Shown here: piece by piece, positions 10,865 through 49,279 of the stretch | How positions within the stretch are numbered: the stretch's first letter is position 1 | How the letters are laid out: each line of letters opens with the position of its first letter | DNA from: an uncultured Alistipes sp. | Lineage (GTDB): Bacteria > Bacteroidota > Bacteroidia > Bacteroidales > Rikenellaceae | Assembly (NCBI GenBank): GCA_944321965.1 | Contig: CALUNH010000006.1 | Location: 1 to 64,000, forward strand | Direction of reading: 5' to 3' | DNA: 64,000 nt | The notes under the pieces: model-generated | The model's input: the letters and a program-made list of their open reading frames with translations, nothing else | Databases searched by the model: none | Told to the model about the DNA's origin: nothing | Translations under genes and position numbers: made by a program

Positions 10865-10924
10865 GAACCGGATCGGAAACCCTTCAAAGGTTCCTCCGCC
10901 CCTGAAACCCGGTTCTTAACCGGG
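10865..10924. repeat. Degenerate right half of hairpin element E1
   Basis: It resembles the right halves of E3 and E4: a TCGGAAACCC-like segment, then CCCCTGAAA and a 17-nt hairpin CCCGGTT-CTT-AACCGGG at 10908-10924. The left half is missing. It abuts E2 with one base between the hairpins. Confidence 0.6.
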
Positions 10925-10925
10925 C

Positions 10926-11180
10926 CCCCTTTAAGAAAGGGGTTCTATGGGCGATGGTATCTGTGAAGCCTTTCCGATCCGGTTCCGCGCTTCCGACAGT
11001 CGTATGCGGGTAAAAGATTCGGAAACCCCGTAAGGTTCAGCAGCCCACAGAGCCGACGGGGCGGGTAAAGGCTTCGGAAGCCCCGTAAGGTCCAGCAGTC
11101 CACAGAGCCGACGGGGCGGGTAAAGGGTTCGGAATCCCCAATAAGGTCCAGCAGCCCACAGAGCCCGCCTCTTAGGCGGG
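10926..11180. mobile_element. Hairpin-bounded intergenic element E2
   Basis: Left terminal hairpin CCCCTTT-AAG-AAAGGGG (10926-10942), then a segment shared with E4 (TTCCGATCCGGTTC, CGCTTC, GTCGTATGCGGGTAAA), an internal 55-bp unit present three times, and right terminal hairpin CCCGCCT-CTT-AGGCGGG (11164-11180). It encodes nothing recognisable. The ends are inverted relative to each other, as in MITE-like elements. Its right end overlaps the purA stop codon. Mobility is inferred from the second, distant locus at 48.8-49.3 kb. Confidence 0.6.
11006..11168. repeat. 55-bp tandem repeat, three copies
   Basis: Copies begin at 11006, 11061 and 11116, each opening with GCGGGTAAA and containing GTAAGGT.CAGCAG..CACAGAGCC. 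They differ at several positions. The period is constant at 55. The unit corresponds to the single core of E3 and E4. Confidence 0.85.
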
Positions 11181-12443
11181 GCGGACGACGGTTTCGCCGC
11201 GGTCGGGACCGACGGAGATGATCCGCACGGGAACCCCGGTTTCACACTCGATGAAATCCACGTAACGCTTGAACGCCTCGGGGAACTCCTCGTAGGTGCG
11301 GCACTGGCGAAGGTCGCATTTCCAACCCTCGAACTCCGTATAGACGGGTTTCAGGTCGTCGGTGATCGTGTAGGGGAATTCCGTGGTGCGGCGCCCGCCG
11401 ATCTCGTAGGAGGTGGCAACCTTGATCGTATCGAAGTCGTTCATCACGTCGGACTTCATCATGATGAGCTGCGTCACGCCGTTGATCATGATGGAGTATT
11501 TCAGGGCCACCATGTCGAGCCACCCGCAACGGCGGCGACGGCCCGTCACGGCCCCGAATTCGTGTCCGAGTTCGCAGAGTTTCTCACCCGTGGCGTCGAA
11601 GAGCTCCGTGGGGAACGGTCCGCTGCCCACGCGCGTGCAGTAGGCCTTGAAGATGCCGTAGACCTCGCCGATGCGGTTCGGGGCGACACCCAGTCCGGTG
11701 CAGACCCCGGCGCAGACGGTATTCGACGACGTGACGAAGGGATACGACCCGAAATCGACGTCGAGCAGCGTACCCTGGGCCCCTTCGGCGAGGATCGACT
11801 TGTCCTGAGCCAGGCAGTCGTTGACGAAATACTCGCTGTCGATGATCCGGAAGCGGCGGAGGTACCCCACGGCTTCGAACCACTGGGCTTCGAGGTCGGT
11901 GATGTCGTATGCGTAGTCGAGGCTGCGGAGGATCTTCTCGTGGCGGGCCTTGGCCGCGGCGTAGATCTGCTCGAAGTCGGGGCTCAGCAGGTCACCCACG
12001 CGCATTCCGTTTCGGCTGACCTTGTCGGTATAGGTGGGGCCGATGCCCTTTCCCGTGGTTCCGATCTTGGCGCTTCCCTTGGCGGCCTCGTAGGCGGCGT
12101 CGAGGATGCGGTGCGTGGGGAGGATCAGGTGGGCCTTTTTCGAGATGCAGAGCTGTTGGGTGAGATCATGTCCGCTGCGTGCGAGCTCTTCGGCCTCGGC
12201 ACGGAACAGCACGGCATCCAGCACGACTCCGTTTCCGATGATGTTTGTCTTCCCGCCCTGGAAGATACCCGAGGGGATCGAACGAAGCACGTATTTTTCC
12301 CCGCCGAACTCCAGCGTATGACCGGCATTGGGACCGCCCTGGAAACGGGCTACGACCTCATAACGGGGCGTAAGCACGTCCACGACCTTACCCTTGCCCT
12401 CGTCGCCCCACTGGAGGCCGAGGATGACGTCTACTTTTTTCAT
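11172..12443 (-). CDS. purA: Adenylosuccinate synthase
   Basis: 423 residues; joins IMP and aspartate with GTP to form adenylosuccinate, the first committed step to AMP. The N-terminal GDEGKGK loop (residues 13-19), GPNAGHT, GTTGKGIGPTY and the C-terminal SVGPDRGETV segments are all present. The length fits the family. The TAA stop lies in the loop of the E2 terminal hairpin, so the repeat now sets the last residues. A -7 box lies about 50 nt upstream. Confidence 0.97.
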   Translation of the reverse strand: MKKVDVILGLQWGDEGKGKVVDVLTPRYEVVARFQGGPNAGHTLEFGGEKYVLRSIPSGIFQGGKTNIIGNGVVLDAVLFRAEAEELARSGHDLTQQLCISKKAHLILPTHRILDAAYEAAKGSAKIGTTGKGIGPTYTDKVSRNGMRVGDLLSPDFEQIYAAAKARHEKILRSLDYAYDITDLEAQWFEAVGYLRRFRIIDSEYFVNDCLAQDKSILAEGAQGTLLDVDFGSYPFVTSSNTVCAGVCTGLGVAPNRIGEVYGIFKAYCTRVGSGPFPTELFDATGEKLCELGHEFGAVTGRRRRCGWLDMVALKYSIMINGVTQLIMMKSDVMNDFDTIKVATSYEIGGRRTTEFPYTITDDLKPVYTEFEGWKCDLRQCRTYEEFPEAFKRYVDFIECETGVPVRIISVGPDRGETVVRPA

Positions 12444-12740
12444 TGTATCCGGATCTGTTTTTGTTTTTGGGTTACAAAAGACATTTTTGCTCCCAAAGGT
12501 ACGAAATAATCCGGGAAAAGCGCAACCCCGAAGCCGGACTTTTCAACAAATTATAAAAAAACGGCGCCGCAACGGAAACGTTTTTCCATCCGGCACCATG
12601 TTTTTCAGGGGACAGACTCCGCACGCGCCGCAGAGGCCCCGCAAGGCCGCGGCAACACGAAAAACGGAAAGCCGCCGAAGACTCCGCAAAGCCGCTCGGC
12701 CGGGCCGAACGGGAGGAAAGGTCCAGAATCAGAATCAGGA
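12444..12740. other. Spacer between the acidic-protein gene and purA
   Basis: About 300 bases without a gene. The purA-proximal part holds the purA promoter region (-7 box at 12494-12501) and A/T-rich DNA; the rest is GC-rich with a small TCGGCCGGGCCGA palindrome at about 12695. Nothing else recognised. Confidence 0.6.
12494..12501 (-). promoter_or_regulatory. -7 box for purA
   Basis: TACCTTTG on the minus strand, about 50 nt before the purA start; a TTGC about 20 nt upstream may serve as a weak -33. Confidence 0.55.
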
Positions 12741-13079
12741 TCAGATATCGACATCGTCGTCCGACGACTCGGAGAGTTCCGAGGCATCGTCGTCGGCACC
12801 CTGCAGATCGTCGGCGCCCTTCAGTTCGTCATCGTAGTAGTCCTTGTCGTCGTCGTCCTGCGCCGAGTCGTCGATCTTCACGTCGATCTTGATCATATAG
12901 GCCACCTCGTCCGTGTCATACGGCACGGCATAAAAAAAATCGCCGTTGGGTTTGTCCACCCGAATCATCGAATCGGTGAACCCCAGCGGGTATTTCTCCT
13001 TGACGGCCTCCTGCATCTCCGGAGTGAGGTTGTGAAAACTCGTTACGATATGTTTCTTTGCCATATTCTGTTTAGCCAT
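12741..13079 (-). CDS. Conserved small acidic protein, unknown function
   Basis: 112 residues from the ATG at 13079 (an in-frame ATG at 13064 would give 107; a longer frame to 13154 reaches into the ligA upstream region). The first 75 residues look folded (IVTSFHNLTPEMQEAVKEKYP, FFYAVPYDTDEVAYMIKIDVKID), and the last 35 are almost all Asp, Glu and Ser. I do not recognise a named domain; I believe similar proteins occur in other Bacteroidales but could not check. Probably cytosolic. Divergent from ligA. Confidence 0.7.
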   Translation of the reverse strand: MAKQNMAKKHIVTSFHNLTPEMQEAVKEKYPLGFTDSMIRVDKPNGDFFYAVPYDTDEVAYMIKIDVKIDDSAQDDDDKDYYDDELKGADDLQGADDDASELSESSDDDVDI

Positions 13080-13218
13080 GGTAATGCTTCGAAATTTTCT
13101 GCAATTATACGCAAAATTTGCATATCGCACCACATCTGCAATTTTTTTTTGCATTTTTTTTGTTTTTACCCGTTGTTCCCATCAAAATATGTAACTTTAC
13201 GCACGTTATTTTCAAGGT

Positions 13219-48662: not shown

Positions 48663-48771
48663 ATTACATTTATCGTTCCCTATTTTGCCAAAATTTGCCG
48701 TTTTTGTCAGCAAGAACAATAACGTAACGCTTACGTTAAACAAAATGTCATGCGGCGGATGCACCCGCCCA
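48636..48771 (-). ncRNA. Candidate small RNA, about 135 nt
   Basis: A near-perfect promoter (48777-48807) is followed by a stretch without a usable ORF and then a terminator hairpin with a T-rich tail at 48636-48662. Three hairpins can form: GGCGG...CCGCC near the 5' end, TAACGTAA-N3-TTACGTTA in the middle (48720-48738), and the terminator. The only ATG frame inside is six codons long. No Rfam family was recognised; a 6S-type RNA is possible but the 5' and 3' ends do not pair. The start point is estimated from the -7 box. Confidence 0.5.
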
Positions 48772-48776
48772 CAAGG

Positions 48777-48807
48777 CAAAGATACGAATTTTTGGAAAAG
48801 AATCAAA
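48777..48807 (-). promoter_or_regulatory. Full consensus promoter of the candidate sRNA
   Basis: Minus strand: TTTG (48804-48807), exactly 19 bases, TATCTTTG (48777-48784). This is the complete Bacteroidota primary sigma consensus and the best-matching promoter in the window. The left hairpin of E3 begins 4 bp further upstream. Confidence 0.75.
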
Positions 48808-48810
48808 TCC

Positions 48811-48956
48811 CCGGCTTAAGAAGCCGGATTTAGGGGCGAAGGGATGTTGAAAGGATCGGAAGCAAATCACCGCTCCCGACGGTCGGTCGTATGCGGGTAA
48901 AGGCTTCGGAAACCGCTAAAGGTTCAGCAGCCCCTAAAACCCGGCTCTTAGCCGGG
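48811..48956. mobile_element. Hairpin-bounded intergenic element E3
   Basis: 146 bp. Left hairpin CCGGCTT-AAG-AAGCCGG (48811-48827) plus ATTTAGGGGCGAAGGG, core with GGTCGTATGCGGGTAAAGGC and TTCGGAAACC, then CCCCTAAAA and right hairpin CCCGGCT-CTT-AGCCGGG (48940-48956). The two ends are imperfect inverted repeats of each other. No coding content. Confidence 0.6.
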
Positions 48957-49135
48957 CACCTTTTGCTGTCAAAAGGTGCCACCAAAACCATCCGCAAGTT
49001 GCTTTTTACGGGGCCGCAGTTTGGCGTCGCGGAAACGGGCGCCTGGCGCGGGTTTGCAAGCAAACCGGCCCCGTTTCTTATCGCGCCGCCTGCGCTGCGT
49101 CCTCTTTCCGCAAAAAGCAAAGTGCGGCAGCAAGG
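48957..49135. repeat. Palindrome-rich spacer between E3 and E4
   Basis: Contains GCACCTTTT/AAAAGGTGC (48956-48979, loop of 6). A long-range inverted pair ACGGGGCCG (from 49009) with CGGCCCCGT is flanked by TTGCTTTTTACGG and CCGCAAAAAGCAA, so most of the 179 bp could fold into one imperfect stem. No gene is seen. Confidence 0.5.
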
Positions 49136-49279
49136 CCCTCCTAAGAGGAGGGTTTTAGGGGCGATGGGGCAAGTGACGTGTTTCCGATCCGGTTCTGCGC
49201 TTCGACGGTCGTATGCGGGTAAAGGCTTCGGAAACCCCAATAAGGCCCAGCAGCCCCTAAAACCCGGCTCTTAGCCGGG
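49136..49279. mobile_element. Hairpin-bounded intergenic element E4
   Basis: 144 bp. Left hairpin CCCTCCT-AAG-AGGAGGG (49136-49152) plus TTTTAGGGGCGATGGG, core TTTCCGATCCGGTTC, CGACGGTCGTATGCGGG, TTCGGAAACCCCAATAAGG, then CCCCTAAAA and right hairpin CCCGGCT-CTT-AGCCGGG (49263-49279). The same core as E2 and E3 with a different left arm sequence. Confidence 0.6.

What the first reader, a model, noticed from the sequence alone, without database searches (positions are those of the whole stretch)
10908..49279. Intergenic element family bounded by 17-nt hairpins whose arms vary but always pair
Seven hairpins at the ends of four elements (10908, 10926, 11164, 48811, 48940, 49136, 49263) share one design: a 7-bp stem closing with T:A around a 3-nt loop, AAG on the left and CTT on the right. 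Six different arm sequences occur (CCCGGTT, CCCCTTT, CCCGCCT, CCGGCTT, CCCGGCT, CCCTCCT) and each pairs perfectly with its partner. This is covariation, so the fold is under selection. Left and right ends are inverted relative to each other, like terminal inverted repeats, and the core sequence is shared across loci 38 kb apart. No transposase is nearby; trans mobilisation, a REP/MITE origin or a structured RNA are all possible.
Basis: seen in the sequence. Interest (0 to 1): 0.78.

Follow-up and report, generated by a model that had tools for sequence, protein, structure and literature searches.

The report
Exchangeable stop-codon hairpins in Alistipes
Dozens of short DNA hairpins, many of them right at gene ends, are scattered through some Alistipes gut bacteria; their stems differ between copies and between close relatives yet nearly always pair, like known bacterial palindromic repeats but without the enzyme known to spread those.

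Summary
They belong to a dispersed repeat with a unit of about 64 nt: hairpin, conserved tag TTYTAKGGGC, variable tail. The window's genome has 75 pattern hits, 69 pairing fully, with 8 arm types; nine other genomes of the genus have 24 to 111 hits. With arms left free, 19 of 24 copies in a complete relative and 122 of 138 in named Alistipes loci pair fully, against 3.2 and 15.2 with shuffled partners. Hairpins sit at stop codons: 62 of 145 gene 3' ends facing an array have one within -25 to +10 nt, against 3 of 95 gene 5' ends. At the same stop, close relatives carry different, still paired, arms: stems are exchanged as blocks. Y1 (RAYT-type) transposase was not found in the ten most amplified of 121 genomes. 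Best reading: a new REP-like family forming BIME-like mosaics, seen only in Alistipes in the scan made, mobiliser unknown.

The parts
10861..10924 (-). unit 1: hairpin CCCGGTT-AAG-AACCGGG (10908-10924), tag TTTCAGGGGC, alpha-type tail
10926..10989 (+). unit 2: hairpin CCCCTTT-AAG-AAAGGGG (10926-10942), tag TTCTATGGGC, alpha-type tail
10990..11116 (-). tandem beta-type tails without recognisable hairpins between units 2 and 3
   Evidence: read; partial matches at 10998-11101
11117..11180 (-). unit 3: hairpin CCCGCCT-AAG-AGGCGGG (11164-11180), tag CTCTGTGGGC, beta-type tail; the TAA in the hairpin (11172-11174, minus strand) is the stop codon of the adenylosuccinate synthetase gene
11172..12443 (-). 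purA (Adenylsucc_synt) ending inside unit 3
48811..48874 (+). unit 4: hairpin CCGGCTT-AAG-AAGCCGG, tag ATTTAGGGGC, alpha-type tail
48893..48956 (-). unit 5: hairpin CCCGGCT-AAG-AGCCGGG (48940-48956), tag TTTTAGGGGC, beta-type tail; head-to-head with unit 4
48957..49135 (.). second kind of repeat module (M2-like): hairpin CACCTTTTG..CAAAAGGTG, then a long imperfect hairpin with its own inner sequence
   Evidence: related frames elsewhere
49136..49199 (+). unit 6: hairpin CCCTCCT-AAG-AGGAGGG, tag TTTTAGGGGC, alpha-type tail
49216..49279 (-). unit 7: hairpin CCCGGCT-AAG-AGCCGGG (49263-49279), tag TTTTAGGGGC, beta-type tail; units 6 and 7 together fold as one long hairpin

Best explanation
A REP-like dispersed palindromic repeat of Alistipes. 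Shown: the unit is a perfect 7-bp hairpin with a polar AAG (sometimes AAA) loop, a conserved 10-nt tag on one side and a variable tail; units occur singly, in tandem and head to head, mixed with other short repeat modules; many abut gene stop codons with the tag pointing away from the gene, some supplying the stop; at one stop codon the arms are replaced as blocks between close relatives. Inferred: the loop and tag, always on the same strand, are what a trans-acting factor reads, on the folded single strand; the stem only has to pair, so it is free to vary. New copies are placed beside stop codons by that factor, and ectopic exchange between copies (breakpoints in loops and at hairpin feet) then swaps stems. 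At RNA level the hairpin stands where a terminating ribosome meets it. Not shown: the factor, movement in the laboratory, any effect on expression.
For: Pairing with free arms: 69 of 75, 97 of 103, 19 of 24, 50 of 53, 122 of 138 and 7 of 9. Loop polarity: of 247 tagged perfect hairpins 221 have AAG and 22 AAA; the single CTT row is a false tag match. Unit and tag: 194 of 250 hairpins carry the tag. Stop-codon position: 62 of 145 gene 3' ends against 3 of 95 5' ends, all 62 with the 5' arm towards the gene, gaps piling at 0 (16), -9 (13) and -23 (9). Presence and absence: the guaA-like stop carries a hairpin in 9 of the 30 nearest genomes plus one degenerate copy; the purA stop in 9 of 30, plus a 6-bp form in G085; the site of L230 in 2 of the 17 genomes printed. 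Block change of arms: purA G000/G076 2.2% coding difference, 6 of 14 arm positions; G168/G167 0.8%, 8 of 14; guaA G000/G076 5.2%, 4 of 14. Junctions: 4 half hairpins and 13 hairpins short of 1-2 nt directly before a new hairpin. Copy number differs sharply between species.
Against: No mobiliser identified. No clean insertion with both ends and a target duplication was found; every filled site compared is an array or has a diverged far side. 83 of the 145 gene 3' ends have no hairpin in the -25..+10 window, and with the tag required of the hairpin itself only 46 of 241 units lie there. Two relatives (G168, G167) have an untagged hairpin with inverted loop at the guaA stop, and L282/L283 show an AAG loop with the tag on the other side. 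Many ortholog pairs keep identical arms at greater divergence, e.g. purA G076/G168 5.2%, 0 of 14; guaA G166/G165 13.5%, 0 of 14. Counts include orthologous sites of related species and rest on my own gene caller. Most genomes are MAGs; G167 has two purA hits on different contigs, so its 0.8% pair may be a strain mixture.
Confidence: 0.62

Rival explanations
1. Ordinary RAYT-driven REP/REPIN: a Y1 (HUH) transposase made, or once made, these copies and was missed or lost.
For: The anatomy is that of REPs: stems of 6-9 bp, short loops, a conserved tag at one end, alternative complementary stems, dimers and clusters (PMC3733652, passages). REP_Sm of Stenotrophomonas is a perfect palindrome with a 3-nt spacer next to its tag (PMC8266576, passages).
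Against: PF01797 gives no match at E <= 0.01 in any of the ten most amplified of 121 genomes, while controls ring and one unamplified genome (G075) has a clear one; own genome only a sub-threshold match at E 0.07. No GTAG beside the hairpin. G168 and G167 were not searched for PF01797, and draft genomes may lack the gene.
Confidence: 0.15
2. A functional RNA element of gene ends (3' stem-loop, terminator or ribosome brake) kept by selection; spread is secondary.
For: Fixed place and orientation at stop codons. E. coli REPs within 15 nt of a stop stall ribosomes, as reported in passages of PMC12306157. Paired units fold well (z -4.3).
Against: Terminator scan: none of the three hairpins at 10.9-11.2 kb is called; of the four at 48.8-49.3 kb two are called, both on the strand where the tag does not follow. 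Presence at a given stop is restricted to one clade, and arrays vary wildly between close relatives.
Confidence: 0.12
3. Replication template switching makes and repairs the palindromes; pairing needs no selection and no recogniser.
For: Template switching can create and maintain perfect stems, with multi-base compensatory changes (PMC8794818, abstract and outline). Breakpoints in loops and hairpin feet.
Against: The starts of abstracts seen say template switching inverts spacers; loops here are polar in nearly all tagged copies. It does not explain a small shared set of arms, the tag, or new loci at stop codons.
Confidence: 0.07
4. MITE of a DDE insertion sequence with hairpin-bearing terminal inverted repeats.
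For: Head-to-head pairs such as 49136-49279 have inverted ends.
Against: Single and tandem units without a partner are common; left and right arms of one pair usually differ; no repeated transposase family seen by eye among the 25 largest clusters of 356 proteins near hairpins; no target duplication seen.
Confidence: 0.04

Closest known systems
GTAG-tagged REPs and REPINs with RAYT (TnpA_REP)
   Same: short perfect palindrome, short polar loop, conserved tag at one foot, inverted pairs, mosaics, alternative complementary stems, many copies at gene 3' ends (papers seen as passages)
   Different: tag is TTYTAKGGGC, on the other foot and longer; no Y1 gene found in amplified genomes; eight or more stem types mixed in single arrays
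CGTC-tagged REPs
   Same: REP design without a dedicated transposase (PMC3733652, passages)
   Different: their stems are 8-9 bp with A/T pairs first and loops of 4-5; ours are 7 bp with a 3-nt AAG loop and a different tag
BIMEs of enterobacteria (recalled, plus listing)
   Same: clusters of palindromic units mixed with other short modules
   Different: modules and units share no sequence that I know of; not compared by a search
Untagged stem-loop families of other bacteria named in PMC3733652 (passage)
   Same: REP-like hairpins outside the two tagged super-families
   Different: ours has a tag of its own and a 47-nt tail

Membership tests
REP (broad sense) | short palindrome in many dispersed, mostly extragenic copies | tested here: met
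   75 hits in own genome against 19 control; positions
REP (broad sense) | conserved tag at one foot of the palindrome | tested here: met
   194 of 250 hairpins carry the tag; it is not GTAG or CGTC
REP/REPIN of the RAYT type | GTAG (or variant) tetranucleotide at the foot | tested here: not met
   alignment of 70 units
REP/REPIN of the RAYT type | Y1 transposase (PF01797) in the genome | tested here: not met
   no match at E <= 0.01 in the ten most amplified of 121 genomes; drafts, so absence is not absolute
CGTC REP | CGTC tag, 8-9 bp stem, 4-5 nt loop | tested here: not met
   against the passages
Intrinsic terminator | GC stem followed by a T run on the gene's strand | tested here: not met
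   none of the window's seven hairpins is called on its tag side; the tag holds at most four T in a row
MITE with TIRs | paired inverted ends and target duplication | tested here: inconclusive
   pairs exist but so do single and tandem units; no clean insertion for a duplication test
Rfam families | match at gathering score | tested here: not met
   0 in the window; two matches at E about 0.8, below gathering, in four loci
IS91-type Y2 elements | Y2 transposase (PF04986) | tested here: inconclusive
   0 of 20 genomes, but no control genome rang

The most novel reading that the evidence does not exclude
A categorically separate class of palindromic mobile repeat: a factor that is not a Y1 transposase reads loop and tag of a folded strand, places copies exactly at stop codons, and lets the stem be swapped like a cassette, so that the element supplies gene ends without fixing their sequence.
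Probability: 0.25. Interest if true: 0.82.

Novelty: new variant of a known kind. Interest (0 to 1): 0.6.

Why it matters
How REP-type repeats spread without a RAYT is an open question raised for CGTC REPs (passages of PMC3733652). Here is a family with recent change between close relatives, tied to stop codons, in gut bacteria that can be cultured in part (Alistipes sp. An66 is titled as an ordinary assembly). It also warns against reading paired-arm variation as selected covariation: stems here can change in blocks.

Tried and rejected
Chance or artefact: rejected by the free-arm pairing tests and controls. Known RNA family: none. RAYT: not found. Y2: uninformative. Nearby mobiliser: clustering of 356 proteins within 1.5 kb of hairpins; I looked by eye at the 25 largest clusters, which read as housekeeping or lipoprotein families, and did not scan them against Pfam. 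Conserved fold in the tail: RNAalifold predicts only the hairpin, and since I chose perfect hairpins for that alignment its pair counts are no evidence. A count of pairs in the tail failed for a wrong structure length and was not repeated. Replication strand bias: GC skew from 20 samples of G168 was too noisy to place the origin. Clean insertion into a repeat module: two modules are broken by a hairpin, but the far half does not resume in what was held. Terminator reading. The search for half hairpins used patterns written after seeing examples; it illustrates, it does not test. Papers on such repeats in Alistipes: searches listed 4, 0, 2 and 2 papers; from titles, abstract starts and the passages of PMC8040213 none describes this family; subscription journals are not held.
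Full report
1. Observation. In the whole window 8 perfect 7-bp stems enclose AAG or CTT, and 7 are these. The whole genome (G000, 2.6 Mb, 82 contigs, 85% complete) has 75 hits to CCNNNNTAAGANNNNGG against 19 for the reversed pattern; 69 pair at all four free pairs, with eight arm types, against 10.7 on average with shuffled partners. Similarity to 49136-49279 finds 54 matches in the same genome.

2. Unit. 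Across the loci used, 250 perfect hairpins were found and 194 are followed by the tag. An alignment of 70 units shows hairpin, TTTTAGGGGC-like tag and a tail of about 37 nt ending near GCGC; alpha and beta tails are my names. Only the hairpin is predicted as structure, and the choice of perfect hairpins makes that count circular. Units occur singly, in tandem about 64 nt apart, stacked, and head to head, with other modules between. A divergent subfamily with tag TTTTAAGSGC occurs mostly as single copies in G099.

3. Distribution. Among 121 genomes of the genus the ten highest counts are 111, 83, 75 (own), 54, 54, 50, 31, 30, 26 and 24, with reversed-pattern controls of 7 to 19; the rest are near their controls. 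A scan of 84,980 species genomes with the tagged pattern reported 81 stretches; 80 are listed, 77 titled Alistipes and 3 others. In the Alistipes hits 97 of 103 pair fully and 6 have one mismatch; 0 of the 3 others pair. That scan would miss subfamilies with another tag. One viral contig matched and was not examined.

4. Free-arm test. Requiring only TAAGA and the tag, full pairing is 19 of 24 in G168 (shuffled mean 3.2, max 9), 50 of 53 in G000 loci (7.6, max 17), 122 of 138 in named Alistipes loci (15.2, max 27) and 7 of 9 in G099 (1.6, max 6). The G168 set is the cleanest; the other loci were partly fetched with patterns fixing CC and GG. Sets overlap in kinship.

5. Place. With my own gene caller, 133 arrays gave 145 gene 3' ends and 95 gene 5' ends. 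A hairpin lies within -25..+10 nt of the end in 62 and 3 cases; in all 62 the 5' arm faces the gene. Gaps pile at 0 (16), at -9 where the hairpin's TAA is the stop (13), and at -23 where the tag's TAG or TAA is (9). If the hairpin itself must carry the tag, 46 of 241 units lie there. Orthologous sites of related species are counted apart, so these are not independent events. The window's purA (Pfam) ends on the TAA of the hairpin at 11164.

6. Same site in relatives. purA: of 30 loci 9 have a hairpin at the stop, G085 a 6-bp form, and the 3' side of 5 was not seen; more distant species have none there. A gene I take from memory to be guaA: of 30 loci 7 have a tagged hairpin 0-4 nt after the stop, G168 and G167 an untagged one with inverted loop, G023 a degenerate one; the other 20 have none at the stop. 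A site that I take from memory to be mreB: G099 and G176 filled, the other 15 printed not. At a fourth site G167 and G168 lack the hairpin that four relatives have.

7. Arms change as blocks. At purA, G000 and G076 differ by 2.2% in the last 400 coding bases but at 6 of 14 arm positions; G168 and G167 by 0.8% and 8 of 14; at guaA G000 and G076 by 5.2% and 4 of 14; all perfectly paired. In purA part of this is a 3-nt shift of register. Against it, other pairs keep identical arms at 5 to 13.5% divergence, and G169 shows a single G-U intermediate, so stepwise change occurs too. G167 may be a strain mixture, having two purA hits. Remnants of broken hairpins stand directly before new ones in 17 places, 4 halves and 13 shortened; three of the halves are at one orthologous gene.

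8. Polarity. Of 247 tagged perfect hairpins the loop is AAG in 221, AAA in 22, other in 4; the one CTT is a false tag match. L282/L283 hold an imperfect copy with tag and loop opposed. Template switching alone should invert loops; so I infer a reader of loop and tag.

9. Mobiliser. PF01797 has no match at E <= 0.01 in any of the ten amplified genomes; three of 121 have one, of which only G075, not amplified, is over the cut-off. PF04986 is uninformative.

10. Known kinds. Papers seen as passages: REPs have 6-9 bp stems, short loops, tags, dimers and alternative complementary stems; CGTC REPs lack a dedicated transposase (PMC3733652); REP_Sm is a perfect palindrome with a 3-nt spacer beside its tag and TnpA reads loop and tag (PMC8266576); REPs within 15 nt of stops are tied to ribosome stalling (PMC12306157). 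Template switching can keep stems paired (PMC8794818, abstract). I file this as REP-like, not as a RAYT REP.

Noticed in passing
G168 (loci L320-L343): All 24 tagged hits of the complete 3.38-Mb genome lie in the arc 2.30 Mb - 0 - 0.41 Mb; none between 0.41 and 2.30 Mb. Replication origin not placed.
   Followed up: partly
window 48957-49135; 26 copies: A second repeat module of about 150-180 nt has a conserved core (GGAGGCTGNAAAGGCNTGATCTTNCTGC in one type) inside long arms that vary and, by eye, pair; two copies are broken by a hairpin unit.
   Followed up: partly
L067:543-643, L077, L078: A third module TCATTCCCGCGAAGGCGGGAATCCAG and its variants stands beside hairpin units; it resembles, from memory, repeats of other bacteria.
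   Followed up: no
L229 (viral contig IMGVR_UViG_3300024349_000290): One viral contig carries a tagged hairpin match.
   Followed up: no
G099:C11, loci L230-L248: Hairpinless relatives with TTTTTATTAAGGGC-like starts and TTAATAAAAA ends stand beside the G099 subfamily.
   Followed up: no
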